Origin: Rhizophagus irregularis
Taxonomy: Eukaryota; Glomeromycota; Glomeromycetes; Glomerales; Glomeraceae
Length of the DNA: 64,000 nucleotides
NCBI RefSeq assembly: GCF_026210795.1
Contig: NC_089455.1
Span: forward strand, 1,922,001 to 1,986,000
Direction of reading: 5' to 3'
Shown: piece by piece, positions 2,093-64,000 of the stretch
Position numbering within the stretch: the first letter of the stretch is position 1
How the letters are laid out: each line of letters begins with the position of its first letter
Made by a program: the position numbers and the translations under genes
Notes under the pieces: generated by a model
Told to the model about the DNA's origin: nothing
The model's input: only the letters and a program-made list of their open reading frames with translations
Databases searched by the model: none

Positions 2093-3742
2093 TAGAGTTC
2101 CGAACAGATTGACCAAATTCAGGTAACCTGACAGGTTGACCTGAATTTATCAGGTCAGATTTAGCAATTGCAACTTCGCATGTCAGTTGAACATGAACTT
2201 AAATGACCTTAACTTGACCTGTTGACCTGAAACTATAATTTTATATAAGTGGGTTATGGTATTATAATTCACTTTTCATATTGATTTATATAATAAAAGT
2301 GAATTGCAATATCAGTATTCACTTTTTTATATTGATTTTATATTTAAAAAGTGAATTGCGGTATCAGAATTCACTTTTTTATATTGATTTTATATATAAA
2401 AAGTGAATTGCAGTATTGGAATTCACTTTTTATATTGATTTTATATAAAAAAAAGTTAGTTGCAATATTGCGATTCATCTTTTTATACGATTTTAGTATA
2501 AAAAAGTGAATCGCAATATTTCAAAAAAAAAATGTTTTGCACCATTTTTTTTTGATATTTTAATAAAAATTCCAAAAATTTTCAGGTTTCAGTTCAGGTC
2601 AGGTCAAACAGATAATCTGATATGACCTGACCTGACCTGATCTAACTAGTGTTCCGAACAGATCGAATCAGATCGGATTTGAGATGAATCCGATCTGATC
2701 GAATTGACAAAAAAGTTGATTTAATCCGATCTGAATTCGGATCAAAAATAATTGATCGATCGATCCGAATTCGAAATGAGCTTGATTCGATTCGGCTAAA
2801 TCCAATTCAGATAAAACTGATCTGGTCCAAATCCGATCTGAATCAGAAGTTAAAAAACATTGCGAAACATTTTTTATTTCAATTTAAATGAAAAAAAACT
2901 GTTGCAAAACGGTTTTTTAAAATATTTTAATATAAACTGTTGCGAAACGGTTTATTTAACTAAAAAAAACCGTTTCGCAATGGTTTTTTAAATCATTTTA
3001 ATATAAACCGTTGCAAAACGGTTTATTTAACTAAAAAGAACTGTTTCGCAACGGTTTTTTTAAATTGGTTTAGTATAAACTATTGCGAAATGGTTTATTT
3101 AACTAAAAAGAACCATTTCGTAACGGTTTATTAATTATTTTAATATAAACCGTTGCAAAACAGTTTATTTAATTAAAAAGAACTATTTCGCAACAGTTTT
3201 TTAAAATATTTTAATATAAACCGTTGCGAAACAGGTTTTTTAACGATTTTAATATAAACTGTTACAAAATGGTTTATTTAACTAAAAAAACCATTTTGCA
3301 ACGATTTTTTTAACAATTTTAATATAAACCATTGCGAAACGGTTTATTTAACTAAAAAAAACTGTTGCGCAATGGTTTTTTAAATTGTTTTAATATAAAC
3401 CGTTGCGAAACGGTTTATTTAACTAAAAATAACCGTTTTGCAACGGTTTTTTATTGTCTTAATAAAAAACGTTGCGCAAAACGTTTTTTATTTTCTAAGA
3501 TTCAGATCCGATCTGAATCCGATCCGAATCCATTCGAATATGATTCGATCTGATCTGATTTGAATGAATAACTGATCCGATCTGATTCGATCCGAAATGG
3601 ATCAAATTTTTTGATTCGGATCAGATCACGGATCATAAAAAAGCTGATCTGATCTAATCTGATTTGTTTCGGATCAGATCCGCGGATATGAATCAGATCA
3701 GATTTTTTTCGGAACACTAGATCTGACCCATTCAGAACTCTA
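2093..3742. mobile_element. hAT-like element, AGGTCAACCTGA subterminal family, host of a nested element
   Basis: Ends TAGAGTTCCGAACAG and CCATTCAGAACTCTA; target duplication GATACATA at 2085-2092 and 3743-3750. Both sides carry reiterated CAGGTCA/TGACCTG motifs. The interior (2250-2560) is a series of hairpins of the type GTGAATTGC...GCAATTCAC. No ORF. It contains the complete element 2647-3719 and interrupts the integrase-like relic. Confidence 0.88.
2647..3719. mobile_element. hAT-like element, GATCCGATC family, nested
   Basis: Perfect end pair TAGTGTTCCGAA...TTCGGAACACTA, target duplication GATCTAAC/GATCTGAC (2639-2646, 3720-3727; one mismatch). Subterminal GATCCGATCTGAATC-type repeats lie at both ends. 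The core 2850-3490 is an array of about ten hairpins around GTTGCGAAACGG and its complement. No transposase ORF. Confidence 0.88.
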
Positions 3743-22100: not shown

Positions 22101-23913
22101 TGGGGCTCTGATCAGTTTCAGTAATTACCAAACCAAACCGATCAGTTTCAGTATCGGAACGGTTTCAGTATTCTGATTTAATGAACTGAACCTTTCAGTA
22201 AATTTACCGATCGGTTTCGGTAACTTCGGTTTCGATATCGGTTTTGCAATTTACTGAACCGATTTACCAAACTGATATTTTCGGTATTAGTTTCGGTAAA
22301 TTTTACCGATCATTTTGGTAAATTTTACTGATCACTTCAGTAAATTTTACCGATCATTTTGGTAAATTTTACTGATCATTTCAGCAAATTTACCGAACTG
22401 ATTTGCTGAACGTTTTGTGATGTTGATAAAAAACGTCGCGAAATGTTTTTTTTGACAATTTAATAAAAAGCGCTTGTGGAAACGTTTTTATTAGTTAATT
22501 TATTTAAAAAAATGTTTCTTGTGTCAATGTTTTTTTTTTAATAATTTAATAAAAAGCGTTGTAAAAGCGCTTTTTATTAATTGAATTTATTTTTAAAAAA
22601 AGTAAAAAACGCTTTACGCATCGTTTTTTTTTAACAATTTAATAAAAAGCGCTATAAACGCGTTTTATTTGTTAATTAATTTTAAAAAAATGTTTCGCAA
22701 CATTTTTTTCATAAGCTTAATAGAAAAAACGTTTTCACAAGGCGCTTTTTTTTTGATAATTTAATAAAAAGCATTGCGAAACATTTTTTTAAATTAATTA
22801 AGCTAATAAAAAGCGCTTCGCAACATTTTCTATTAAGTTATGAAAAAAACGCGTTAAATTGAAGCGTTTTATTAGTTAATTTATTTAAAAAAAAGCGCTT
22901 CGCTAAGCGCTTTTTTAGTAACTTAATAGAAAAATGTTGCAAAAGCGCTTTTTTATTAGTTAATTAATTAAAAAAAGCGTTCTTTCAACATTTTTTCAAT
23001 AATTTAATAAAAACGCTATGTAAAGCGCTTTTATTTGTTAATTTATTAAAAAAAAGCGCTTTTGCAACATTTTTTCTATAATTTAATAGAAAACGTTGCG
23101 AAACGTTTTTTATTAGTTAATTAATTTAAAAAAAATGTTTCGCAACATTTTTTTTGATAATTTAATAAAAATGTTGCGAAAGCGTTTTTATTTGTTAATT
23201 TATTTAAAAAAAATGTTTCGCAAGCGTTTTTTCAATAACTTAATAGAAAACATTGCGAACGTTTTTTATTAGTTAATTAATTTTAAAAAAGCGTTTACTT
23301 CGCAACGTTTTTTCAATAACTTAATAGAAAGCGTTGTGAAATGTTTTTTATTAGTTAATTAATTAAAAAAAATGTTTCGCAACATTTTTTTCAATAATTT
23401 AATAAAAACGTTGTGAAACATTTTTATTTGTTAATTTATTTATAAAAAACGTTTCGCAACGTTTTTTTCAATAATTTTATTTGTTAATTTATTTAAAAAA
23501 AACGCTTTACAACGCTTTTTTGATAATTTAATAAAAACGCTAAACGCTTTTATTAATTAATTTATTTTAAAAAAATGTTTCGCAACATTTTTTTTGATAA
23601 TTTAATAAAAACGCTAGAAACGCTTTTTATTTGTTAATTTATTTTAAAAAAAACGTTTCACAACGTTTTTTTTCAATAACTTAATAGAAAACGTTGCGAA
23701 ACATTTTTTAATAAAAAACGTTGCGAAAACGTTAAAACTGAACCGATAATGAATCGGTAAATCAGTTCGGTTTTCGGTATTTACCGGTCGGTTTTGGTAT
23801 TGATGATTACTGAAACCGATTAGTTTCGGTAATTAACAATGCCGATACCAATCAATTTGGTTCGATTTCAGTTTTGGCAAAAACCATACTGAACTGAACC
23901 GATCGGAGCCCTA
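22101..23913. mobile_element. hAT-like element, TTTCGGTAAATTTACCGATC family, 1.8 kb of hairpins
   Basis: Ends TGGGGCTCTGATCAG / CCGATCGGAGCCCTA; target duplication GTAAAAAT at 22093-22100 and 23914-23921. GATCRGTTTCRGTA and complement repeat at both ends. The core 22430-23720 is a long array of hairpins built on GTTGCGAAACG / AAAAGCGCTT, separated by TTAGTTAATTTATTT or AATTTAATA. No ORF. It sits in an intron of the 14480-26709 gene. Confidence 0.88.
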
Positions 23914-25254: not shown

Positions 25255-26637
25255 TAGAGCTCTGAATAGGTCAGGTCAGGTCAGGTTAATTGATAAACCT
25301 AACCTGAAATTTTTTTCAGGTCAGGTCAGGTCAGGTTATATCAGGTTGTCTATTTGACCTGACCTGACCTGAAACCTGAAAAATTTCAGGATTATTTTTA
25401 TTAAAGTATTGAAAAAAAACGGTATAAAACTTTTTTTTTTAATATAATATTATGACATATCTGCCGATCTGCTGAATTAACAAAATTTGTCTAAATTAAG
25501 GAATTTGACAATAATTTAATAAAAATTAGGTAAATTAAGTTTTGCAAAAATGATCACACTTGTGCTACATGATTATATGACAGATATTAAGAAATTACTT
25601 CAACAAAAAGTAGCATTAAAAAAATTTTTTTCTTTTGTAAACTTCCTATTAAACTTCCCATCAACTCCTCCATCAACTTTTCAAACAATTTTTACATCAA
25701 GTAAGTTGAGAATTTTTGCAAGTATATTTGTAATTATTTTATATTAGATACAACTTGGAGCTGTTTTTTTATTTTTTTTTATAGTTTATAGAAAAAATTT
25801 ATTTAGAAAGCAAAATTATTCAAAAAAATCTTTTCAATAAATAAATAACTCTAAATATTTATAACGATGTTTTAGCGAATTTAGATTATGTATTGATTAG
25901 TTGTTTAATTAAAATCTATTTGATATTTATTATTACAGTATTAATTATTTTTCAGTTAATTTTTTTTCGTTAAATCATTAAATATTCTGAATTTTGTAAA
26001 GTTTTCTTTTGTTTTTTCTAATAAACTAACTTTATAATATTTTTTTCCTTTTTTTTCTAGAAACTCCTTTTACTGGTTTTGGGTTAAAGAGGTAAATATT
26101 TTGGGAGAAGTCTTAAAAGTTTTTTTATATATTTTTTGACATTTTTTCTTATATAGGAATGGGTTTTGATCGATTTTAATTGGTACTACGCCACATAACT
26201 GATGATCAGCAAATTCTGCAAATCGGCGGATATGAAAAAAATGTTTTTGCAACGTTTTTTATTAAAATATTGAAAAAAATATTGCAAAACATTTTTTTAA
26301 TATAACATTATAAAAAAATGTTTTTGCAACGTTATTATTAAAATATCAAAAAAAAATGGTATGAAATATTTTTTTAATATAATATTATGAAAAAACGTTT
26401 TCACAACGTTTTTTCTCGAAATATTGCGATTCAATATTTTTATATTGATTTTGTATAAAAAAAGTGAATTGCGGTATTGCGATTCACTTTTATTATATAG
26501 TAGAATCAATAGTTTTAGGTGATGTAATCGATTTCAGGTCAATCTTCGTATCGACCTGAATTTTTTTTAAAAATCTCATACCTGACCTGAATTTCAGGTC
26601 AGATCAGGTCAGGTTACCTGAATTTGGCTGAGCTCTA
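25255..26637. mobile_element. hAT-like element, CAGGTCAGGTC family, with an internal inverted-repeat insert
   Basis: Ends TAGAGCTCTGAATAGG / GAATTTGGCTGAGCTCTA; target duplication ATAGCACG/GTAGCACG at 25247-25254 and 26638-26645. Removing it rejoins GIAR to SIFNYFNRD in frame. An insert bounded by CATATCTGCCGAT (25456) and ATCGGCGGATATG (ends 26234) lies inside its hairpin core. No transposase ORF. Confidence 0.87.
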
Positions 26638-34934: not shown

Positions 34935-36210
34935 ACCCTGGGTATATATCAATTTCACCAACTTAAAAATTGAATTATACCTACGGGGGTATCTGTATGG
35001 AATATTGGAAAAATTGGCCAGAATTAGCTGAATTCTTACCAGAATTAAGATTTTTTAACCACATATCATACCTCCGATATTATATGTTTAGACGTAGTAG
35101 GTGCTTTTGCAGTGCTATACGGTATTATAGGCAAATGCGGCATAGTAGCCTTTATCTTTATTAAATTTATTCGAATATTCTTTACAGAAACCTTAAATTT
35201 TTGAATAATACCGAATTGATATAGTAATGATGTTAAATATATATCGTAATGATATCGATTTGCAAATGATATCATTATGATATCGCAATGATATCATTTC
35301 AATATTAATTCAATATATCGACATGATGTCGTAAAGATATTTGTTTTGAAAAAATATCAGATTGATATCATTTCGATATTGTTATAACAATAATGAAAAA
35401 TAGAAAGTAAATACGATATTAATACGATATCGTTCTAACATTAATTCAATATCAATACGATATCGTAAAGATATCACTTTATAATTATCTAATCGACATC
35501 ATAACGATATTGATGAAACATCAAATTGATATCATTTCGATATTGTTATAACAATAATGAAAAATAGAAAGTAAATACGATATTAATATGATATCGTTCT
35601 AACATTAATTCAATATCAATATGATATCGTAAAGATATCACTTTATAATTATCTAATCGACATCATAACGATATTGACGAAACATCAAATCGATATCATT
35701 TCAATATTGTTATAACAACAATGAAAAATAGAAAGTAAATACGATATTAATATGATATTGTTCTAACATTAATTCAATATCAATATGATATTGTAAAGAT
35801 ATCACTTTATAATTATCTAATCGATATTGACAAATAACGAAACGATATCATTTTGATATTGTTATAACAATAATGATTTTTTTTTAATAAATGCAATATC
35901 AATATAATATTATTTTAATATTAATTCAGTATCAAAATAATATCAAAATGATATTATCTATAAAAATATCAAATCAATCAAATATCGTTAAATTCAATTT
36001 TATAATATTTTAATAATTTGTAATCTAATTTAAAAGTTAATTTCAATAGATTTAAGTTACCGGTTATTTATTACAATAACAATTTTAATTACAGATAAAG
36101 TATACATTAGTTTAAATATTATATAACAGATAAAAAAAATATCAATAAATCTATAATAAACTAATTCAATAAATTAGAATTATGAGTTAAATTGGTGATG
36201 TAAATCAAAA
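34935..36210. repeat. GATATC-rich block with a 164-bp tandem repeat
   Basis: 35225-35960 is saturated with GATATCATT/AATGATATC palindromes. Three 164-bp units start with TAGAAAGTAAATACGATATT at 35401, 35565 and 35729. 34935-35224 and 35960-36210 hold no gene I can support. Confidence 0.8.
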
Positions 36211-36649
36211 CATTACTTTACTAAAAATGGTTATTTTTTGAAATACTTTTATAATATTCTTATTATACTTTTGTAATACTGACATTATTTTGTAATGGTT
36301 GAAATTGTTTTTATATATTTCGCAATTAATTACAAAGATTATATCACAAGGGCTAATAAAAGTATTACAAACCATAATTTCAAAACAATTTAAATATTAT
36401 GTTGCAATGGTGTTTGTAATTGATTTATTATTAATAATATAATTATAAATTGAAATTATTATGAAATTGTATTGCAATATTTATAATATTAATATAAAAT
36501 TGTATTGCAATGGTTTATATATCTTAATATGAAATTGTATTGCAATACTATTGCAATGGTTTATATATCTTAATATGAAATTGTTATGAAATTATATTGA
36601 AATAGTTGTAATAATATAAATCTAATCATTATTTTTATAATTGTACTAT

Positions 36650-36740
36650 CTTTTTGTCAGGCAGAGGGAGCAGCAATGGCTCTCCCCCTATAGGCATTAA
36701 TTGGCCTCTACCTGTTTACAGAGGAGAGGCTTTTTGTAAA
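36650..36740 (+). other. Possible short coding fragment
   Basis: Reads GRGSSNGSPPIGINWPLPVY and RGEAF in a locally GC-richer stretch; no family recognised. Confidence 0.2.
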
Positions 36741-36990
36741 GTTAAAATTAATAGATATATATACATCAGGAAGTTACGAAAAAAATGTACATTACATATA
36801 CATTTATGCAAATCATGTACATTGCAATATTCATTCTTTTTAATGTACAAGTAATATTTAACATTAATGAACATCATCAATGAAATTTTTATCATGATGT
36901 GCAGCATTTAATAATAAATATTCAATGTACATATCTTTGCTATAATAAAAATATAATTACTAACTAGTAAATTTCAGTTAGTATTGATCG

Positions 36991-37003
36991 GTATCATGTG
37001 ATC
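36991..37003 (+). promoter_or_regulatory. Shared palindromic upstream motif, array A
   Basis: GTATCATGTGATC followed by CGATCGATCTTTTTTT and a C/T-rich leader. The counterpart at 39427 has the same order, suggesting a promoter or 5' control element (inference). Confidence 0.4.
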
Positions 37004-37039
37004 AGTTTGCCGATCGATCTTTTTTTGATAAAAAAAAGT

Positions 37040-39045
37040 CTAATAAAAAACTTTAAACTTTTTTTTCCCTTTCTTTCACTTCCCTTCTGTCCCCTTGTCC
37101 TTTCGTCCTTCTCCTATATCCTTCCCTTTCCTTTCGTCCTTCACTTCCCTTTCGTTCTCTTCTTTTTCTCACACCTGTAAGTTTCGTTACTTTTTTTTAA
37201 TTTATTTTTTTTTTTTTTTTTTTTTAATTTTATCTTTTTTTTCGTTTCTTTTCATTATTTTATTTTTTGTAGGACGTTTACTAGGGGACGCCGGCTTGAA
37301 TACTATGAAACCGGACTTTAAGGTAGTAAGGAACTGAAAAGGGGAAGATTTTTTGTTATTTTTAATTTAAGAAACGAACTAACGTTTCTCTTTTATTATT
37401 TTATTTTTTGTAGGACGTTTACTAGGGGGACGCTGGCTTGAATACTATGAAACCGGACTTTAAGGTAGTAAGAAACTGGAAAGTGGAAGATTTTTTGTTA
37501 TTTTTAATTTAAGAAACGATCTAACGTTTCTTTTTCATTGTTTTTTTTTGTAGGACGCCAGCTTGTTCACGAAACCAGACTTTAAGGTAAAAAACTGGGA
37601 AAGGGGGATGGTGGAAGGGGATTTCGCAAAGAGGAACCAAGATTCGTAAGAATCTTAGTTTTTTTTTATTTTTTTTATTATTATGAAACGGTTTACTAAC
37701 CATTCCTTTCTTTTTTTTATAGGTTCGGTGTCTTGGAAGGGCTTCCGAAGAATGGAAAATGGAGAACTAAGGTTCGTAAGTATTATATTCAGTTACGAAC
37801 CTTAGATTTATTTCTTTAATACTATGGACGGTTCTAACCGTTCTTTTTATTTTATTTTTTATAGGTTCTGTCGGGTGATCTTCCGAAGAACGGAAAACGG
37901 AGAACTAAGGTTCGTAAGTATTATATTACGAACCTTAGATTTATTTTTTTAATACTATGAACGGTTCTAACCGTTCTTTTTATTTTATTTTTTATAGGTT
38001 CCATCGGGTGGTCTTTCGAAGAACGGAAAACGGAGAACTAAGGTTCGTAAGTATTATATTACGAATCTTAGATTTATTTTTTTTAATACTATGAACGGTT
38101 CTAACCGTTCTTTTTATTTTATTTTTTATAGGTTCCGTCGGGTGGTCTTCCGAAGAACGGAAAACAAAAAACTAAAGTTCGTAAGTATTATATTACGAAC
38201 CTTAGATTTATTTTTTTTAATACTATGAACGGTTCTAACTGTTCTTTTTATTTTATTTTTTATAGGTTCCGTCGGGTGGTCTTCCGAAGAACGGAAAATG
38301 GAGAACTAAGGTTCGTAAGTATTATATTACGAACCTTAGATTTATTTTTTTTTAATACTATGAATGGTTCTAACTGTTCTTTTTATTTTATTTTTAGGTT
38401 TTGGGTTTCTCAGGTGTCTTCTGAAAAATGGAAAAAACCAAAATTCGTAAGTACGAATCTTTGGTTTATTTTTATTTATTTTATTATTATGAACGGTTTC
38501 TAACCGTTCTTTTCTTTGATTTTTAGGTTTCGGGTGGGCTTCTGAAGAACAGAAAACCCAAAGATTCGTAAGGACAATACGAATCTTTAATTTTTTTAAT
38601 TTTTTTTGTTATTTCTAATTCTTTTTCTTCTTTTAGATCTTGGGTGGGTTTCTGAAGAACGGAAAAAGAAGACGAATCTTAACGGATTGGTAAGTTTCGA
38701 AGATTTCAATTCACTTCGAAACTTGGATTTTTTTATTTTTCTTTTAGAAACGTAAACTAACGTTTCTTGTTTGCTTTTTTTTGTAGGATCTGGGATCACT
38801 CAGTTATATGGAATTTCGAAGGTATATACAGTACCTTCAAATTTTTATTTTTTCTAACAAAACGTTTTTACTAACGGTTTCATTTTTTTTTCTTTTGTAG
38901 GTCCAAGACGCGACTGGATCCTATTTCGAAGGTATATATATCCCTTCGAATTTTACTTTTTTTTATTTTTAACGAAAAGTTTTATTAACATTTTCATTTT
39001 TTTCTTTATAGGTTTATTTTGGAAATCAATTTTTATCTAGTATTT
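37040..39045 (+). ncRNA. Micro-exon array A (putative spliced non-coding transcript)
   Basis: A pyrimidine-rich leader ends at the donor CCT/GTAAGT (37177). Then come exon-like units 37273-37322, 37414-37464, 37554-37586, 37723-37775, 37865-37913, 37998-38046, 38132-38180, 38266-38314, 38398-38446, 38527-38567, 38637-38689, 38787-38821, 38901-38931 and a terminal one from 39012. Each is preceded by a T-rich tract ending TAG and followed by GTAAG or GTA. Intron-like gaps are 69-97 nt. Five exons of 49 nt are near copies (GTTCCGTCGGGTGGTCTTCC ... CTAAGGTTC). Exon ends and intron starts pair into hairpins, and a CTAAC lies in a second hairpin loop. Transcription is not shown by sequence; it could instead be a hairpin repeat mimicking introns. 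Confidence 0.5.
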
Positions 39046-39426
39046 AACATATTATATAGATTTAAAATAGCCATAGATATTATATTAATTAGTTAATAAT
39101 ACATTTGTATAGTATAATGATAGTATAATAATAAATAACGCATGTATTTTAATATCATTAATAAATGTGTTAATTAATCGTAATGTACAGGTGATGAACA
39201 TCTTTAATTTGGCGATGAACATCAAATGTTGTGACATCGGTAGTACATTGCAGGGTCCGATGTTCAGCGTTTCTTTATGATGTACATCAAGTGACCGATG
39301 TACATTTGATGAATATTTTTCCCGTGACTTCCTGATGTATATGTATATATGAGTATATATATACATCTAAAAAAAAATATAAAAAAAAATTTTTCGGAGG
39401 AAAGCCTCCTATTTATATTAATTTAA

Positions 39427-39438
39427 GTATCACGTGAT
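39427..39438 (+). promoter_or_regulatory. Shared palindromic upstream motif, array B
   Basis: GTATCACGTGAT, followed by a second TATCATATGATA, AATCGATC and T-rich then C/T-rich leader, in the same order as at 36991. Confidence 0.4.
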
Positions 39439-39619
39439 TTACGTGATTCATAGCAGATAGCCGCAGCTTAAACTTTTTGTATCACGCGTCGTATCATATG
39501 ATAAAATAGATCTAATCGATCTTTTTTTTTTTAAGTTTTTTTTTAAGTTTTTTTTTAAGCTTTTTTTTTTAAGCTTTTTTTTAAGCTTTTTTTTAAGCTT
39601 TTTTTTTTTAAGCTTTTTT

Positions 39620-41480
39620 TAACGAAACTTCCCTCTTTTTCGTTTTTCTCTTTTCCCCTTTTTACGTTCTTCCCCTTCTATTCCTCTCTTTCGTTTCCCT
39701 CTCCCTTTCTTTCGTTTCCCCTAAATTAAAAGCTTTTCTCTGTGAAAAATCACAATCTTTTTTTTTAGGATACATTTTCGTTTCAGCGGGTCTCTTGTGG
39801 AAATGTAATTCATTTCGGCCTTCATACGCTTGGGAATTCAGGTTTCTTTTTAGACGGCCAAGAACTGCATTGAAATTAGGTAGGAAAGGGAGGGTGTATT
39901 CTTTCGTATTTTAATTTACGAAACGTTTATTAACGTTTCTGGTTTCTTTTTTTTTTAGACGGGTTTATGGATTTCTTTGAACGCGCGAGTTTCTTCAGCT
40001 TTTTGGCTCAGGATTTTGGTAAGACAATTTTTTTTATTAATTTTTTTTATTTTTAACGAACCTTACTAAAAGTTTGTTTCTTTTTCTTTTTTTAGGCGGG
40101 TCTTTCGGGTCAGACGTTAGTGTGACGTTTTTTTTTAAATATTTAACGAAACGGCTACTAACGTTCATTTTTTCTTTTGTAGATGGCCCTTCGGGGTATT
40201 TGGACGCGTGGAATTTCGGTGAGAGGAGTTCTTTTAGTAGGCTCCGGTCCTCAGACGCGTGGAAAACTCGGTAAGGAGGGTTAACTTTTGTTAATTCTTT
40301 TAACGAAATGATCACTAACGTTTCATTTATTCTCTTTTGTAAACTTCAGGACATTTAACGCGTGGGGTATGGAAAATGGTAAGTTTTGCAACAGGCGTTG
40401 CGAAACTTCAATTTTTTAATAATTTAATTAGAAACGTTTATTAACGTTTCTATATATTATTTTTGTAGGGTTTCAGTCTTTTGGTATATTAGGGAAGATG
40501 AAAGGTAAGTTTCACGAAGCATTTTTTTATAATCTTATTTAATTAGAAACGCTAACTTTAATAGCGTTTCCTTTCTTTTGTAGGTTCAGTATTGGATACA
40601 GGTCCCGAAATGGTAAGTTTCGTACGTTTCGTTACGAAACTTCCCGTTGTATTTTTTTTATTTTTTTTTAATTAGGAAATGTTTACTAACATTTCCTTAT
40701 TTATTTCTTTCAGCGAAACGGTTTATTTTTTAGATTGTCATGTCCTGGACGTGTAAGATTTCGGTAGGGGTTTACAGAAAACAAACCTTTTTTTACTTTT
40801 AGCGAAACGTTTACTAACGTCTCGTTTCCCCTTTTTTTAGGCGGCTTATTCTTGATCCTGGACGCGTGGAATTTTGGTGAGTTTTTTTAAAATGCTTATT
40901 TTAACACAACGTTAGTAACAAACCGCTTACTAACGTTTTTGTTTTTGCATTCTGTTAGGTGGCTCTTCAGGTCATTTTTTATTTTGAACTTCTGTTTTGG
41001 TTTAAAAAATCTTTGTCTTCATTATTTTAATGAAAACATTTCATATTTTTTATTTTCTAGATTACTACAGTATTTCTTCAGATCTTCAGGTATTTGGCGC
41101 GTAGTATTTGCAGGATTTTTGATGTTTTACCGACAAACAAGAAATTTAGAACTTTAAAAGTTTGGCCAGGTCTTCAGACGCGTGGGACGTGTGAGTTCGG
41201 TATTTATTTTTTCCTTTGATTTATTTATTTTAACGGACTGTAACTAATAGTTCATTTTTTTCTTTTTTTTTAGGTTGTTAGTTCTTCAGATTTCTTTGGA
41301 TATCCTTGGACGCGTAAGTTTCGTTCGGATTTCTTAATTTACGCATTTCAACGAAAGGTTCTAACAGTTCGTTTTTGCTTCTTTTTAGACGGCTGCTATT
41401 AATCGGGTTTCAATTTTTTTTGTAGAACTGACTTTAGAATTTCTATTTGCTAGAAATCAGGCGTATAATAGAAGAATAAA
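39620..41480 (+). ncRNA. Micro-exon array B (putative spliced non-coding transcript)
   Basis: The same architecture as array A with different exon sequence. Best-defined exon-like units: 39959-40018, 40183-40218, 40350-40378, 40469-40504, 40584-40612, 40734-40763, 40841-40876, 41061-41089 and 41274-41313; others are ambiguous. Donors are GTAAGT, GTAAGA, GTGAGA, GTGAGT or GTAGGG; acceptors are T-rich plus TAG/CAG. Introns carry GAAACGTTTACTAACGTTTC-type hairpins with TACTAAC in the loop. Exons share a GGACGCGTGGAA core and CTTCAG words. No conserved reading frame. Confidence 0.45.
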
Positions 41481-41944
41481 ATATCTTTATTATACTGAAT
41501 TATATAGGAAACCTCGAAATGCCATTAAGGTACATTGGATTTTCACGTGTTGGGTGGACATCTGGAGAATTATATAGTTTTTTGTTACATTCCGGACTAT
41601 GCGTGACCATTAATTAAAAAAACTATTAAAACTATTAACTATTACAGATTCATTGTAAAACTATTTATCTTAGTAAATGTAAACAATTGCAAAACAATAT
41701 GAAATAAATTATAATTATATTATAAATTTGTTAAAAATAAATTATAAAGCTATTATAAAACTATTACAAAATAATTACAAAACAATTACAAATCCATTGT
41801 AATTTTTTGACATTATTTTAACATGAAATTATAAGCCTAGATAACATGGTTTTAATGGTTGACACAATGCATTAAAACCATATAAAAATAGTATTATAGC
41901 TATGTCAAAAGCATATCAAAAAAATAGCTATTTTTAGCAAAGTA

Positions 41945-42032
41945 TGCCTTAATACTCCAGAATCATAACTCATCAACCCAAAGTTGAGGATCAACCGGGT
42001 ACCTTGCTTTAGATTCAGCGATACTGCCCAAG
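41945..42032. other. Right flank of the 5.7-kb element
   Basis: Nothing supported here apart from lead-in to the 42033 ORF. Confidence 0.3.
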
Positions 42033-51925: not shown

Positions 51926-54900
51926 ATGACGAGAAAAAGATCATTATCAAGTATACTCAATGAAGAATCAGATTCTAGACCTCATGCCATACCTTCATCA
52001 CGTATACAAAGAACCAGATCAGTGTCAAATATAATTGACGAAGAATCTTCAAATCAATCTTATCCTACATCATCACGTATTGGAAGGTTAGTTGCATGTA
52101 ATTGTTCTGAATGTAATGGACGATTAGTAAATCCTCGTACGAAAACTATCCATGAAATTAACCAAGATTCAGAGGATGATGATTCAGAAAGAACAGAAGT
52201 ACATCTACCTGATGAAGCTGAATTGCCTAGTGACGAACCATACGAAAGTGCCTCAATATCAGATGAACCATGAATGAGAGAATCGGAAGCTGATGAACCA
52301 TACGAAAGTGCCTCAATATCAGATGAACCACGAATGAGAGAATCAGAAGCTGAATTGCCTAGTAGACAACGATCAAGAAAATATGTTCGACCGGTTATAA
52401 TTGCTGAATTAGGAGATACAGTAGATGATAAATCTTCTGAATCTTCTGAATATACTACGGAGGAAGATGCAAATATCGATGATAGAAATGAATCATCCGA
52501 TAATGAACCATCCAATGATGACGAATAAGGTTGCTTGTCTAAACCTCTTCAAAATCCTACGATTAGTTTCGTCAAAATTTTACTATAGATTTATTATAGT
52601 TTCGGCAGAGTTTCGGCAGTTTCGGCATTTATAATAAGTTTCGGCAGTTTCGCCTTTCTCCAAAGTTTCGCCAGTTTTTTAATATAACTTTAATATAGTT
52701 TCGGCAGAATTTCACTTTTCGGCGAAACGCCATCTTGTCTAAACCCCTAGGTTTCGGCAAGCAACCTTAATGACGAATACCACGAAATTTTTGAAGATTA
52801 TTCATGTCCACCTTTCGAACCATTTCAAGATTCTGATACTGAACAATCAATAAATAATCGGTTCTTATGGATATTATTATGGATCATGAGCTTCTGAACC
52901 AGGTTTAACTTACCAGAAACAGCTACAGAATCATTGATAAAATTCTTGAAGCTTGTTCTAACAGAAATTGGTAGTCCTGATTTTGACACATTTTCTGACA
53001 CTTTATATCTAGCAAGAAAAGCCCTTAATCTTGAAGACCAGTTTCATAGTTTTGTGGCGTGTTCCAAATGCCACAAATTATACAACAAACAGGAAATAAA
53101 AAGTTTTCTCCAAAATGAGCAACCTGCCATCATGAAGTGTTGCCATGTCGAATTTTCTAATTCGACAACTCGAAGATTAAGGTTGTGCCAAACACCTTTG
53201 GCACAGAAAACAACATTGTTAAATAACCAAATTTCAATCAAACCTGAATTATTATTTCCGTTTGTGAGTATTAAGCAGCAATTGGAAGCAATGTATCGTC
53301 AACCTAACTTTGAAAATTCTCTAAGGCATTGGATAAATCGTCCAACTTTCGATAATATCCTAACTGATATATACGATGGTGAAGTTTGGAAAACTTTTAA
53401 AGAAACGACAGATGAAAGTTCGAATAATTTTTTCCGATCTGATGTTGCTGATTCGCACCTCAGATTGATTTTGAATTTGGATTGGTTTCAACCCTTCGAC
53501 GGCACAATCCACAGCACCGGAGTAATATACGCTGCAATCGGTAACCTTCCGAGGGATGTCAGATTCAAGCGCAATAATATCTTGATTCTTGGCTTATTAC
53601 CCGGCCCAGATGAAGTAAGTTTACATAAGATTAACCACTATCTGGCGCCAATCATTGATGAGTTGAAGTCACTTTGGGAAGGAGTGACATTAAATAAAAC
53701 GTATGAATGTCAAGAAGGGAAAAGAATTCGCGCAGCTCTGATTCTTGTTTCATGTGACATACCGGCTGCAAGAAAAATTTGCGGACATATTTCCGCTTTG
53801 GTGTCGTGTCATAGATGCGAAAAGAAGGTGAATTATGAAAATCGGCAGCATAATTTCGCTGGGATAAATGAAATGGATGAATGGTTTACTTGCCGTGATT
53901 CGGCTCAACATCGTCAAGATGCTATAGGATGGAGACGCTGTAATTCGGACGCAGCAAGAAAGCGATTTGTAAAGCAAACTGGAGTTAGATGGTCCGAATT
54001 ATTGCGTCTACCATATTTTGATCCAATTCGGTTCATTACAATCGACCCGATGCACTGCTTGTTTCTGGGCATCGCAAAATGGATTGTAAGAAGACTTTGG
54101 ATCGAAAATGGCGTATTAACAACACATATTTTGAAAACAGTTCAGAAAAAAATGGATGAATTTAAAGTTCCAGCTGACTTGGGTCGAATCCCGGAAAAAG
54201 TCGATTGTGGAGATGGGTTTTCAAATTTTACTGCGGATCAATGGCGAATATTTTTTACAATATATGCAACGGTCTCTCTCTGGGAACATCTTTCTGAGAA
54301 TGACCGGAAGATTCTCGTGAATTTTGTGAGAATTTGTTCAATTTCAGTAAGTCGAATTGTAGAAGTCGATTTCATGAGAGAGGCGCATCAGAAGCTAATT
54401 AACCTAGTGAAGTTGATAGAAGAAAATTACGGTCGCGATAAAATCACACCGAATTTACATTTATCACTTCACTTATGTGAATGCTCACTCGACTATGAAC
54501 CTTTATATACATTCTGGTGTTTTTCCTTTGAGCGCATGAATGGCATGCTAGGTATAATATTTTAAATATTCTTGTTACTTTCTAAAATAATGCATTTTTA
54601 TCAACTTTTGTTTAAAATAAATTTAGGTTCTTTTCTGAATAGCAGAAGGAAAATTGAACCGGAAATTATGCGCCGCCTGATGTTTGATAATCAAATCAGT
54701 AATATCATTAATTCCGGCGTGGAATCAAAGGGCCTAGATTTGATTAGTAATAGACCATCTGTTGGCTCTCTATCAGAAGCCGACCAATTTTCTGCTGATG
54801 AAATGAGGCGATTTTGGTTGACTTCAAGAAACATTCATGAATCGACCACCACAGGAAAAGAAGCATTTCCGGGTGAAATGCTCAGACCAGTATTTAACGA

Positions 54901-59904: not shown

Positions 59905-60197
59905 GTTAAAAGTATTTGGACTTAGTTGGATTTCTTAAAATAAGAAAAAAAATATTAATTTTAATAATTGTAATCATTAGTAATAATTGTAATTGTAATA
60001 ATAAATATAATAAATAAATTGCGGTTTAAATATTTTCACGTGATAAAAAAAAATAATTATACATGTCACTAATACAATTTTGTTCTAAAAAGTAACATTA
60101 AGATTAAAATAAGTAATTAAAATGTTGATCACATTGTGCGATGTTCTATTAACAAAAGCCGCACACAAGCCACTATAGAATTTTTCGAATAAACATA
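59905..60197. other. Spacer before the Helitron ORF
   Basis: AT-rich. The Helitron 5' TC terminus should lie here or further left, but I cannot place it. Confidence 0.3.
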
Positions 60198-63100
60198 ATG
60201 AATAATAAATTCATAAATCGAGACACTCTTCGAAAGCGTAAAGCTAGAGAGAATGAAACTCCTAGTCAGCGTGAAACTCGTCTTGCAAAGCAACGTGAAA
60301 GCAGGCAGCAAAAAAGAGCGAATGAAAGCGTTAAGGAGAGAGAGGCGCGGCTTGCACGTGACAACGGACGAAAACGCGCGAAGTTGGCTGTGGAAACGGA
60401 TGAACAATGGGAAAAACATCTAAATAGTTATCGTGAGCGAAGAACTTATCTGATGAACCTCGCCCAAAATCAAGATACAATAAATCAAAACTTGAATTCT
60501 CAAAGAGACAATTTACAGCATTCACATCCGCAGCATCCGCAGCAAATACCTGGTCAAGCCCACAGTGGCACGGATACACATGATAGCACGATCCCCGTTG
60601 ATGATCTAAGCGAATTCGAACGAAATCTCTTAAAGAAATTTCGTAACAAGGTTGATAAACTTAAACATAGTCTTTGCTCTACCTGTAATGAAAGTTTTCC
60701 ATCCATTATACTTGCAAAGGGGGAATGCCGACGTTGCCATGCTGAGAAAACTTCACCGAAAAGGTTCTCAAAAGGGAACAATATGGACCCAGGTGAAGTG
60801 CCTGATGAACTACAAAATCTAACTGAAATTGAAGAAATGTTGATTGCGAGGGTTTTTCCTATGATGTTAGTTTACAGACTTCGTGGGGGTCAACATGGAT
60901 ATCGTGGAAACGTAATCAACTTTCCTCAAAATGTCCAAGAACTTGCCACAAAGCTTCCTCAACATCCATCATCATTGGACGTGCTTGTCATACGTCGTCA
61001 TTCTGCGAGTAATCCGGAAGCATTTAGAGATTTTAGAGTTTGTCGTAATAAAGTAATTCGTGCATTGAATTGGTTGAAAGAGAACAATCGCTACTACGCT
61101 GACATAATCATTGATTATGAAGTGCTCCAATCCTTGCCAATTGATGGTTCAATCGATGACCAGCTTCGAGACGCTCGAATGATCGCAGAAGAATTGAATC
61201 ATGAAAATGAGGATGACGTGATTACACACACCTTTGTTCCATTTTTTTTTCAACTCTTCACGAAGACGTTGCTATAAAAAATGCACTTGATCGTATGCAA
61301 AGTGAAAACAATCCTATCGCTTGGCCACAGATTAATAGCAGTCCCATCAATGAATTTCAGACACCGGGGTATATCGCATGCGCATTTCCAACTTTGTACC
61401 CAACTGGATGCGCGGATCTTCGTGCAAAACGTATTTGGAATATCAAGCCTGCCGAATACTTTAAACACCTGCTTCTGTACAAAGATGGGAGGTTTGCACG
61501 CCATGCTCGATGGCGGTACTTCGCGTTGAACTCTCAAATGTGATGGCGTGCACTACAGGAGGGTAAAGTGTATGTTAAACAGAATTTAACTGATGGACAG
61601 ATCACAGTTACAGACATCCAAGAAAGGATTTCTTCGGGTGATAATCATATTGCCGATAAAATTATGCGATATGGTGAAGGATTATGAGGAACTCGGCAGT
61701 TCTGGAATGGAAGACGTTGCGAGTTGTCCGATATGATTAAGCAAATAGGACCAGAAGGATTAGATTTCTTTACATTCAGTGCTGCCGATTTGCACTGGCC
61801 TGAGCTCCACAAACTTATGCCATCTAACGGAAATTCTGAAACTTCGGCAAAAAACCATCAACAAAACATCATTGATAATCCTCATATCGCGGATTGGTTT
61901 TTCTATAAGCGATTTGAGATTTTTTTTAATGATGTTTTAAAAGAGAAGTGGGAATTGGAAGATTGGTGGTATAGGTTTGAGTGGCAGCATCGCGGCAGTG
62001 TTCATGTGCACGGAATAGGAAAAAGAAGAGGTGCACCGTCAATAGAATGAAAGCATATAAAAGAAGATGAAAGCGTAATGAATGAAGTTGTACAATACCT
62101 CGATAATCTAGTCACCACAATAAATCCAGGACTTGATATGCCTGTTCCCGAACGGCATCCATGTCAAAAGCAAAAGAGCGAAATACGCGATGACCAGCAG
62201 GACTATATCGACTTGATAAATAAATTACAAAGACATACACGATGCAGTCCAGGGTATTGTCTTCGTATTGACAAAGAAGGAAGGCAATTCTGTAGGTTTA
62301 AATACCCTAAAAAAATCGTTGAAAAAACGTTTGTAAGAGATGATGGCCACGGACAACCAGAGCTTGTAACTGCAAGAAACGATCTGTATATCAATCCGCA
62401 TAGCCGACTTCAATTACAAGGTTGGCGAGCTAATGTGGATTTAAAGCCGATTTTAAGTATACATGCTGCGCTGCAATACATTTCTAAATATGCAAGCAAA
62501 GCAGAACCACGATCGGCTGCATTTTCAGATATACTAAATCAAATCCTTAACGAAAGTCAACCAGAGGATCCATTACTTACCTCGGTCCAAAAGCTGTTAC
62601 TGCATAGCGTCGCGGAATGGGATATCTCTGCCCAAGAGACCTGCCATATTCTTCTAGGCACTCCTCTTTACCATTCAAGTCGCCAGTTCGTCATTTTAAA
62701 TCTTAGTAATGAGATACCAAGGTGGATTCGTGGCACCGGGGAAAGTGAGAAATCTCCTGATTCAGGACGAACAGAAAAATCACCCTTGGTAGCATATTGG
62801 GATCGGCCTACCGAACTTGAAGAGTTCTCGCTATTTCAGCTTTATTTAACTCATAGACTTGTCAAAAATCGATGGAAGGAGTGTCAAAAGGAAAATATTG
62901 TCCGTATATTTCTGCGTCCATCACCACTTCGTGAAGGTCCTCAATGGGAGGACTTCTGTCATATAAAAGTTCTTCTTCATGTTTGCCATCGAGACCTTCA
63001 ACAATTAACCGAAAACGAAACTATTGCATGGTCAACTTTGTATAACAACCATCTTGAAGAGATCAATACTGACCCAATTGATCTACTTGGACAACCTATA

Positions 63101-64000
63101 GGTAATGCAGAAAATGAAATCGTTGTTGAAGAGGAAGAACAATTAATCGAAGATGATGAAGAGGATGAATTTCGGTTCGACTGGATGTTTCTTGCAGAAA
63201 TGGGCCTGAACCCAAGTTTCAATTGTTCTTCTGATCTTGGATCTCGGGACATGGACCGGAACCATGATTGGATTAACGATCCAAGGCAACGTTATAATGA
63301 TACCGACCTCAGGGATATTGATACATTTATAAGTAGTGATTCCAGGATTAGTACCGAAGAAGAAAACTTAACCGTGGATTATCAGACACTAAACGATAAT
63401 CAAAAGAAAGTTTTCAATCGAATAGAGTCCCATTACCATGATGTGCTCGTAGAGCATCAAGTCGAACCTTTAAGGATAATTGTAATGGAAACTGCAGGGA
63501 CCGGAAAGACCTACCTAATCGAAGCAATCTGAGGTAGGCTTCAAGAAATGGCGGGAACAGGATCTAAATCGCCTATAGTCGTGCTTGCGCCAACAGGAGT
63601 TGCAGCATTTAACATCAACGGGGGAACGATACATTCGAAGTTATCAATACCAATAATTAATGACGCAAAACGTCTTGATATACAGGGCGAACGATTAAAG
63701 CAACTACAGAATAGATTAAAAGAGGTGAGATATGTAATAATCGATGAGAAAAGCATGGTTGGTCGCCGAATGTTTGCTTTAATTGACATGCGGCTTCGGC
63801 AAGCTTTTCCAGAGCATAATAACGAACCATTTGGCGGCAGATCGGTTATTATGCTGGGAGACTTTGGCCAGCTCCCACCTGTACGTGATCTCCCGATGTA
63901 TGCCAATACTAAGCGAGATGAATTGTCCGATAGTGGTTTTGCGGCATATAAACAATTTAAAGAGGCATATAAGCTTAATGTTGTTCAGCGCCAGTCGGGG
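60198..64000 (+). pseudogene. Helitron Rep-helicase, decayed, 3' end outside window
   Basis: ATG 60198. A basic repeat (TPSQRETRLAKQRESRQQKR), zinc-finger-like CSTCNESFPSIILAKGECRRC region, a DUF6570-like block (IEEMLIARVFPMMLVYRLRG, GYRGNVINFPQNV), frameshift in a T-run near 61240, then the Helitron N-terminal domain: FTFSAADLHWPELHKLM; the HUH motif in RGSVHVHGIGKRRG; the tyrosine motif in HAALQYISKYASKAEP. PIF1-like helicase: METAGTGKTYLIEAI (Walker A, first Gly replaced by Glu), VVLAPTGVAAFNINGGTIHS, VIIDEKSMVGRRMFALIDMR (Ile replaced by Lys), GRSVIMLGDFGQLPPVRDLP. Stops at 61541, 61685, 62048 and 63530. Function of the intact family: rolling-circle transposition. Confidence 0.88.

What the first reader, a model, noticed from the sequence alone, without database searches (positions are those of the whole stretch)
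37040..41480. Two arrays of intron-flanked micro-exon-like units
About 25 successive units show a T-rich tract ending TAG/CAG, a 29-60 nt segment, and a GTAAGT-type donor, with gaps of 69-97 nt in array A. Exon-like and intron-like parts alternate too regularly for chance, and the exon sequences are repeats of each other within each array. I know of no fungal element described this way; micro-exon genes of schistosomes and aphids are the nearest analogy, but those are coding. Splicing itself is inferred.
Basis: partly seen in the sequence, partly recalled or inferred. Interest (0 to 1): 0.93.

Follow-up and report, generated by a model that had tools for sequence, protein, structure and literature searches.

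The report
Jumping genes packed with tiny introns
Two nested mobile DNA elements in a mycorrhizal fungus each carry a chain of ten or more tiny introns whose splicing signals are kept while the exons between them drift, as if being spliced, not making a protein, is what helps these elements survive.

Summary
In detail: 24 intron-like units in two arrays. A strict signal finder gives 19 sense, 0 antisense, 0.40 on average in shuffles. The genome is Rhizophagus irregularis: three deposited "uncharacterized protein" models map here letter for letter, a fourth with one mismatch; together they share 11 of 24 introns exactly.

The arrays sit in two non-autonomous TIR transposons. Element A (36764-39337) is nested in element B (36216-41942); both have 2-bp target duplications and dispersed relatives. 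A third element carries the same kind of array.

Exon lengths break the frame and codon positions vary equally, so the product is most likely noncoding. Among diverged A copies, branch points (0.90 identity), acceptors (0.89) and branch-point hairpin arms (0.83-0.84) are better kept than exons (0.63); 0 of 262 annotation slides match. Two branch-point hairpin patterns give over 1,200 genome hits, 0 in controls.

My reading: these transposons are selected for being spliced, perhaps to escape silencing. The structure is well supported; the purpose is inferred, and the best-studied parallel (HUSH) does not need splicing. No RNA reads were seen.

The parts
36216..41942 (+). Element B: non-autonomous TIR DNA transposon (about 3.15 kb without the nested A). 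Termini CTTTACTAAAAATGG... / ...AGCTATTTTTAGCAAAG, 2-bp target duplication TA (36214-36215 and 41943-41944)
   Evidence: relatives L029-L033; four of five run across the joined flanks of A; termini and 2-bp duplications
36764..39337 (+). Element A: non-autonomous TIR DNA transposon inserted in B. Termini CATCAGGAAGTTACG... / ...CGTGACTTCCTGATG, target duplication TA (36762-36763, 39338-39339)
   Evidence: inverted repeats 36751-36803/39298-39350, 81% complementary; three 98% copies with the same ends; identical 2-bp flanks in 11 of 11 copies with both ends visible; 90 terminal-repeat matches (up to 3 mismatches) in the genome against 0 in the reversed control
37014..37176 (+). Promoter-like leader of array A: TCGATCTTTTTTT, then a CT-rich stretch, first donor at 37177
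   Evidence: the same TCGATCTTTTTTT word lies upstream of arrays A, B and C; a 14-mer with one more T has 81+85 genome hits against 11+16 in control; promoter activity not tested
37177..39011 (+). Array A: 14 introns, 13 exons between them. Introns 37177-37272, 37323-37413, 37465-37553, 37646-37722, 37776-37864, 37914-37997, 38047-38131, 38181-38265, 38315-38397, 38447-38526, 38568-38636, 38690-38786, 38822-38900, 38932-39011
   Evidence: several units have two donors 4 nt apart (GTTCGTAAGT), and some deposited models use the upstream one
37905..37938 (+). Example of a donor hairpin: the GTAAGT at 37914 lies in the stem CTAAGGTTCGTAA/TTACGAACCTTAG
   Evidence: fold of the 55-nt window -19.0 kcal/mol
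37959..37976 (+). Example of a branch-point hairpin: GAACGGTTCTAACCGTTC, branch point CTAAC at 37967
   Evidence: 218+195 exact genome hits of the pattern family against 0 in control
39516..39722 (+). Promoter-like leader of array B: TCGATCTTTTTTTT, then AAGTTTTTTTT repeats, then a CT-rich stretch
39880..41388 (+). Array B: 10 introns: 39880-39958, 40019-40095, 40116-40182, 40271-40349, 40379-40468, 40505-40583, 40613-40713, 40764-40840, 40877-40958, 41314-41388; stretch 40959-41313 not fully resolved
37752..39093 (+). Deposited model OCT59_018291 (135 aa) on array A; reading frame probably not real
   Evidence: spliced alignment without mismatch, 4 of 8 introns identical to mine, 8 of 8 acceptors
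39967..40877 (+). Deposited model OCT59_018292 (113 aa) on array B; skips the 29-nt exon 40350-40378
   Evidence: spliced alignment without mismatch, 3 of 6 introns identical
38091..40877 (+). Deposited model RIR_jg9602.t1 (195 aa), joins arrays A and B and reads array B exons in another frame than OCT59_018292
   Evidence: spliced alignment without mismatch, 9 of 13 introns identical, 13 of 13 acceptors

Best explanation
The region is two non-autonomous TIR DNA transposons of Rhizophagus irregularis, A nested in B. Each carries one transcription unit with a promoter-like leader that is little more than a chain of very short introns and micro-exons. The transcript is spliced at strong-consensus sites and yields a noncoding RNA. 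Selection acts on the splice signals and on hairpins that hold the branch point and often the donor, not on the exon sequence. Most likely mechanism (inferred, about 0.28): being spliced many times makes the transcript look like a gene's, so that the locus is less silenced (by RNAi or chromatin marks) and stays open for a transposase supplied elsewhere. Shown by computation: element borders, nesting, strand-specific intron signals, their conservation, hairpins, absence of a kept frame. Inferred: transcription, splicing in vivo, and the purpose.
For: Ends, duplications, nesting and copies. Intron signals 19 sense / 0 antisense / 0.40 shuffled, 0 in 8 CCT loci. Pairwise identity among A copies other than the window (44 alignments from 25 loci picked for divergence, columns with at least 6 copies): TIR 0.921, branch point 0.895, acceptor 0.889, branch-point arms 0.842/0.829, donor 0.783, rest of intron 0.693, exon 0.627; 0 of 262 circular slides reach the motif mean. 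Array B repeats this for branch point 0.973 and donor 0.876 against exon 0.746. Hairpins: 36 of 85 de-duplicated branch-point windows have at least 6 of 7 pairs, against mean 15.3, max 24 in 200 deals of the 3' sides; fold z below -1.5 in 47 of 85 branch-point and 64 of 134 donor windows, against 0 of 10 and 1 of 20 in CCT introns and 12 of 131 at array acceptors. No frame: exon lengths mod 3 = 52/67/30 (remainder 0/1/2) of 149; substitutions by codon position 57/58/61 outside CpG. A third element (C) carries the same kind of array. Four deposited models together use 11 of the 24 introns exactly; the published DAOM197198 gene set, which I take the OCT59 names to be, was built with Illumina and Nanopore RNA reads (PMC10234402, passages). 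Introns are described as a barrier to nuclear RNAi in worms (PMC5554785, passages); introns shield transcription units from HUSH silencing in human cells (PMC8770142, passages and section 7).
Against: No RNA read was examined; gene models can be ab initio. Acceptors in array B are not conserved among the other copies (0.639 over 12 columns), and branch-point arms there (0.809) barely exceed other intron sequence (0.776). In array A the donor (0.783) is no better kept than the element's flanks outside the array (0.788). Some models use a donor 4 nt upstream, giving 45-nt in-frame exons. The copies are related and the alignments may be drawn to motifs. 49 of 85 de-duplicated branch-point windows do not reach the hairpin cut-off. 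Hairpins at donor and branch point could hinder splicing as easily as help it. In Cryptococcus and fission yeast poor or cryptic splicing is linked to RNAi (reference title and abstract start only), the opposite sign. No silencing, methylation or small-RNA data were tested here.
Confidence: 0.52

Rival explanations
1. A host intron-rich gene, or the 5' leader of an autonomous transposase gene, was captured by TIR elements (Pack-type capture); splice signals are remnants and unit number grew by tandem duplication.
For: A CT-rich leader precedes the array; the number of detected introns differs between copies (4-13 on the array strand in 18 of the 19 A-family loci L009-L016 and L018-L028, 1 in L027); leaders of A, B and C share TCGATCTTTTTTT.
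Against: Passive remnants should not keep branch points and acceptors above exons across copies at about 63-69% background identity. No coding exon after an array was recognised: of 11 A-family loci scanned, 5 have no frame of 110 aa or more, and the 9 frames in the other 6 give no Pfam match above cut-off except a Transposase_21 gene in L036, which the array seems to interrupt rather than to lead.
Confidence: 0.22
2. The arrays are sources of small or hairpin RNA, or bait that feeds the fungus's RNAi by stalling spliceosomes on hairpin-locked introns.
For: Donor and branch point both often lie in hairpins. [quoted passage not shown] content recalled).
Against: A transposon gains nothing by feeding its own silencing. 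Splice signals are strong consensus, not weak. Rfam gives no match at gathering cut-offs in the window and only one weak match, E 0.097 and far below its cut-off, in 36200-42000.
Confidence: 0.16
3. A protein-coding micro-exon gene family, for instance repeat-bearing secreted proteins, read from in-frame 45-nt exons through the upstream donor GTTCG.
For: Seventeen R. irregularis entries (the query among them) match one such model at E 0.01 or better; 45 nt is the commonest distance from acceptor to the upstream donor position (24 of 47 distinct exon units); OCT59_018291 on array A uses that donor in 4 of 8 introns.
Against: Four of 24 distinct 45-nt units hold a stop in that frame and codon positions vary equally; exons are the least conserved class; OCT59_018291 itself reads successive repeats in two frames, RVVFRRTENGELRF and VPSGGLPKNGKWRTK, and the array B models disagree on frame; most other exons are not multiples of 3.
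Confidence: 0.1
4. A hairpin satellite inside transposons whose resemblance to introns is accidental; no splicing.
For: The window holds other palindromic tandem repeats with similar words (for example 22748-23693).
Against: Strand asymmetry 19 to 0, acceptor and branch-point conservation in A, pyrimidine tracts in the right place, matching deposited gene models.
Confidence: 0.04

Closest known systems
Introner elements / introner-like elements (recalled; related stwintron papers seen as listing and abstract start only)
   Same: Many near-identical spliceosomal introns spread by mobile DNA; predicted hairpins (recalled)
   Different: Here the mobile unit is a 2.6-3.6 kb TIR element that carries a whole array of introns with its own exons and leader; its borders lie outside the introns
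Non-autonomous TIR transposons with captured gene pieces (Pack-TIR / Pack-MULE; recalled)
   Same: TIRs, short target duplications, no transposase found, internal transcription-unit-like cargo
   Different: The cargo looks noncoding, its splice signals are under constraint while exons drift, and the same cargo type occurs in three element families with different ends
Micro-exon genes of schistosomes and bicycle genes of aphids (recalled)
   Same: Chains of very short exons with many short introns
   Different: Those are coding; here the frame is not kept and exons are the least conserved part
snoRNA host genes (recalled)
   Same: Multi-intron noncoding transcripts with poorly conserved exons
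   Different: No Rfam RNA at gathering cut-offs in the window; within the introns conservation is highest at the splice signals and branch-point hairpin
Intron-dependent escape from genome surveillance, HUSH (PMC8770142; passages and section 7 read)
   Same: Introns make a transcription unit resistant to silencing
   Different: Shown in human cells, independent of splicing, stronger with longer introns and not with a small artificial one; whether AM fungi have a comparable system was not tested

Membership tests
Non-autonomous TIR DNA transposon (elements A and B) | Terminal inverted repeats at both ends | tested here: met
Non-autonomous TIR DNA transposon (elements A and B) | Constant-length target-site duplication | tested here: met
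   A: the same 2 bp on both sides in 11 of 11 copies with both ends visible; B: in 4 of 6 loci, 1 differs, 1 unclear
Non-autonomous TIR DNA transposon (elements A and B) | Dispersed copies and empty sites | tested here: met
   four of five B relatives run through the A insertion point
Non-autonomous TIR DNA transposon (elements A and B) | Assignment to a superfamily through a transposase with the same ends | tested here: inconclusive
   no transposase found between A or B ends in the loci read; the one long interval with A ends holds a Maverick/Polinton-like insertion
Introner elements | The mobile unit itself becomes an intron in unrelated host genes | tested here: not met
   element borders lie outside the array; insertions in host coding exons were not surveyed
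Micro-exon gene (MEG-like) | Exons symmetric, multiples of 3, coding | tested here: not met
Pack-TIR | Cargo derived from an identifiable host gene | tested here: inconclusive
   no host parent recognised; genome searches score only the best 40 candidates and their hits were not all read
SP7-like effector genes | Conserved intron before the first repeat and the SP7 signature | not tested
   only passages on exon-intron structure read (PMC11333574)
Spliceosomal introns | Excision in vivo (junction reads) | not testable with these tools
   signals and gene models only

The most novel reading that the evidence does not exclude
R. irregularis hosts a class of selfish DNA whose only cargo is splicing: arrays of hairpin-bearing, strong-consensus introns that unrelated transposon families have acquired or exchanged, and that work as a pass against silencing because the host reads a spliced transcript as its own gene.
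Probability: 0.28. Interest if true: 0.93.

Novelty: new variant of a known kind. Interest (0 to 1): 0.8.

Why it matters
If right, introns would be shown as a tool on the transposon's side: selected for being spliced, with exons as mere spacers. It would give a natural test of whether splicing protects foreign DNA from silencing outside animals, and a natural library of more than a thousand branch-point hairpins for studying how RNA structure affects splicing. It may also explain part of the unclassified repeats of AM fungal genomes (24% of the genome left uncharacterized in PMC8647823, passage) and would remove spurious 'uncharacterized protein' genes from their annotations.

Tried and rejected
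Coding by spliced translation: rejected; every frame of the curated splice product of array A is broken; array B has one 155-aa open run, and two annotations read its exons in different frames. SP7-like effector genes as the match: only a lead; passages in PMC11333574 describe one conserved intron before the first repeat. Known RNA family: none at gathering cut-offs. Autonomous partner of element A: the 18.3-kb interval between A-type ends on contig 1 looked like one, but it is an A element with a Maverick/Polinton-like element of about 14.8 kb inserted in an exon, flanked by CGGCT on both sides; so A is not a deletion product of it. Element C was first taken for part of such an element; it is a separate array-bearing element lying inside the A32 ATPase gene. 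A first identity test against the window's own motif letters is biased towards motifs; I replaced it by identity among the other copies. The covariation table was made on windows chosen for long stems and is biased; the dealt control replaces it. Searches for a description in print were made; none of the listings describes such arrays, but most subscription papers and preprints are not in that library.
Full report
WHAT IS THERE. The genome holding the window has 146,748,485 bases in 32 contigs. Protein models found with array translations carry the names RIR_jg9602.t1, OCT59_018291 and OCT59_018292 of Rhizophagus irregularis; the last two lie on a contig of 3,464,122 bases, the length of the window's own contig C27. 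The published DAOM197198 nuclear assembly is 146,773,001 bp (PMC10234402, passage), close to but not the same as the held one. I take the window to be that strain.

THE OBSERVATION. Reading the sequence gave 14 introns of 69-97 nt in array A (37177-39011) and 10 in array B (39880-41388). Most have a GTAAG-like donor, a YTAAC branch point (25-35 nt before the acceptor in the 19 that the finder reports), a T-rich tract and TAG or CAG. A finder with fixed rules reports 19 on the sense strand, 0 on the other, and 0.40 on average in 200 shuffles (max 3). The rest of the window (58.2 kb) gives 3 on both strands together; eight fetched loci of CCT chaperonin genes (six genes) give 0, because ordinary introns there have weaker branch points such as TTAAT. 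The array introns therefore look stronger than host introns; this control is small (20 called introns, some doubtful).

THE CARRIERS. Array A lies in a mobile element of about 2.57 kb (36764-39337). Its ends are inverted repeats beginning CATCAGGAAGT. Three copies elsewhere are 98% identical from end to end, and many more match in part at roughly 67-97%. In 11 of 11 copies with both ends visible the flanks repeat the same two bases (TA, CA, AT, or TT/AA). The end sequence, with up to 3 mismatches, occurs 90 times in the genome against 0 for its reversed control. Array B lies in another element (36216-41942) with ends CTTTRCTAAAAATRGCTATTTTT and a 2-bp duplication in 4 of 6 loci. With A removed in a script, four of five B relatives align straight across the gap. 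So A jumped into B.

A third carrier, element C, was met through a genome search for the branch-point hairpin. It spans roughly 3.56 kb on contig 15. There it lies inside a gene whose relative in L059 matches Pox_A32 (E 9.3e-8) in a Maverick/Polinton-like element. A 3,002-nt query from it matches 12 places in full at 97-100% identity, itself included; only one of these places was read. Its ends read CACTGGTC...GACCAGTG by eye. The A, B and C ends differ, yet the arrays have the same make-up, and the word TCGATCTTTTTTT stands upstream of all three; with one more T it occurs 166 times in the genome against 27 in control.

NOT A READING FRAME. The main repeat exon of array A is 49 nt from TAG to GTAAGT. 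Over 149 consecutive intron pairs the exon length modulo 3 is 0, 1, 2 in 52, 67, 30 cases. If the donor 4 nt upstream is used (GTTCGTAAGT), units become 45 nt; 4 of 24 distinct ones then hold a stop in frame 0, and substitutions outside CpG fall 57/58/61 on the three codon positions. Deposited models are not consistent: OCT59_018291 reads successive repeats of the same exon first as RVVFRRTENGELRF and then as VPSGGLPKNGKWRTK, and RIR_jg9602.t1 and OCT59_018292 read array B exons in different frames. Yet four models together use 11 of my 24 introns exactly (three map without a mismatch, the fourth with one). The published gene set was built with Illumina and Nanopore RNA reads, which is indirect support for splicing. 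I saw no reads.

WHAT SELECTION SEES. Using copies of A at 86% identity or less (44 alignments from 25 loci picked for divergence; near-identical copies left out) I compared the copies with each other, leaving the window out. Mean pairwise identity was: TIR 0.921, branch point 0.895, acceptor 0.889, branch-point hairpin arms 0.842 and 0.829, element flank outside the array 0.788, donor 0.783, other intron 0.693, pyrimidine tract 0.692, CT leader 0.668, exon 0.627. Sliding the annotation round the array never reached the motif mean (0 of 262). Array B (five relatives, 18 alignments) repeats this for the branch point (0.973), donor (0.876) and pyrimidine tract (0.913) against exon (0.746) and other intron (0.776), but branch-point arms (0.809) barely stand out and the acceptor does not (0.639 over only 12 columns). 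The TIRs show what transposition needs; branch point and acceptor come next in A.

HAIRPINS. The branch point sits in the loop or inner stem of a hairpin such as GAACGGTTCTAACCGTTC or AGAAACGAACTAACGTTTCT. Of 231 distinct branch-point windows 139 have a stem of at least 7 by a simple count, against 5.2 expected with the upstream side shuffled. After removing near-duplicates, 36 of 85 have at least 6 of 7 pairs, against 15.3 (max 24 in 200 deals) when the 3' sides are exchanged between windows, so the two arms match within each intron; the other 49 do not reach this cut-off. Donors are also structured: 64 of 134 donor windows fold with z below -1.5, against 1 of 20 CCT donors and 12 of 131 array acceptors. 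Two exact pattern families give 389+430 and 218+195 hits in the genome, with 0 in reversed controls; some self-palindromic sites are counted on both strands. Among the first 100 hits listed for each, many lie about 100-130 nt apart on one strand, that is, as arrays.

HOW IT MAY WORK. A non-autonomous element needs only its ends to move. That it also keeps a chain of splice signals while letting exons drift suggests that being spliced pays. One reason would be protection: introns are described as a barrier to nuclear RNAi in C. elegans (PMC5554785, passages), and introns shield transcription units from HUSH in human cells. But HUSH protection does not need splicing, grows with intron length and was not given by a small artificial intron (PMC8770142, section 7), so it is a parallel in outcome at most. 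R. irregularis transposons carry CpG methylation, while recently expanded families have numerous copies with low methylation (PMC8647823, passages). The role of the hairpins is open: they may time or weaken splicing, or bring donor and branch point together. The opposite view, that hairpin-locked introns stall spliceosomes and feed RNAi, is kept as a rival.

NOVELTY. Searches for micro-exons, introners, hairpins, small exons, Mavericks and spliced noncoding transposons with AM fungi listed no description of such arrays. In two R. irregularis transposon papers a word search of the main text for 'splic' and 'intron' gave 0. The elements are ordinary TIR transposons in kind; the cargo is new as far as these searches reach.

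Noticed in passing
L059 and L060 (contig C1:5317800-5336500): An A element is split by an insertion of about 14.8 kb with Pox_A32-like ATPase, integrase core, chromodomain, aspartyl protease and DUF5679 frames, flanked by CGGCT on both sides: a Maverick/Polinton-like element inserted in a micro-exon.
   Followed up: partly
L048:927 to L061:486: A third array-bearing element with CACTGGTC ends lies inside the A32 ATPase gene of another Maverick/Polinton-like element; exact target duplication not resolved.
   Followed up: partly
L036:1155-3750: An array about 70% like array A, without recognisable A ends, lies beside a Transposase_21 frame (L036:3-1154, E 6.2e-14) and seems to interrupt that gene; possibly a fourth carrier.
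   Followed up: partly
L019:937-1466: Short element of about 530 bp with the first bases of the A termini and TA on both sides.
   Followed up: no
window 22748-23693, 2882-3476, 26231-26426: Palindromic tandem repeats with AAACGTT/AACGTTT-type words, similar in letters to the intron hairpins; a link is possible.
   Followed up: no
window 52898-54565: Frame of 555 aa with a Transposase_21 (tnp2) domain, E 1.6e-15.
   Followed up: no
window 60153-63532: DUF6570 and Helitron_like_N frames: a Helitron-like element at the window's end.
   Followed up: no
window 37770-38315: Donors come in pairs 4 nt apart (GTTCGTAAGT), and GTTC also starts the next exon, so short reads across these junctions can be misplaced by 4 nt; OCT59_018291 uses the upstream donor in 4 of its 8 introns.
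   Followed up: partly
L049 (contig C16:105900-109600): An A element whose array seems to be interrupted by another array with different exons (TTCGGCCTTTCCTTGGAGTTAT...), read by eye.
   Followed up: no
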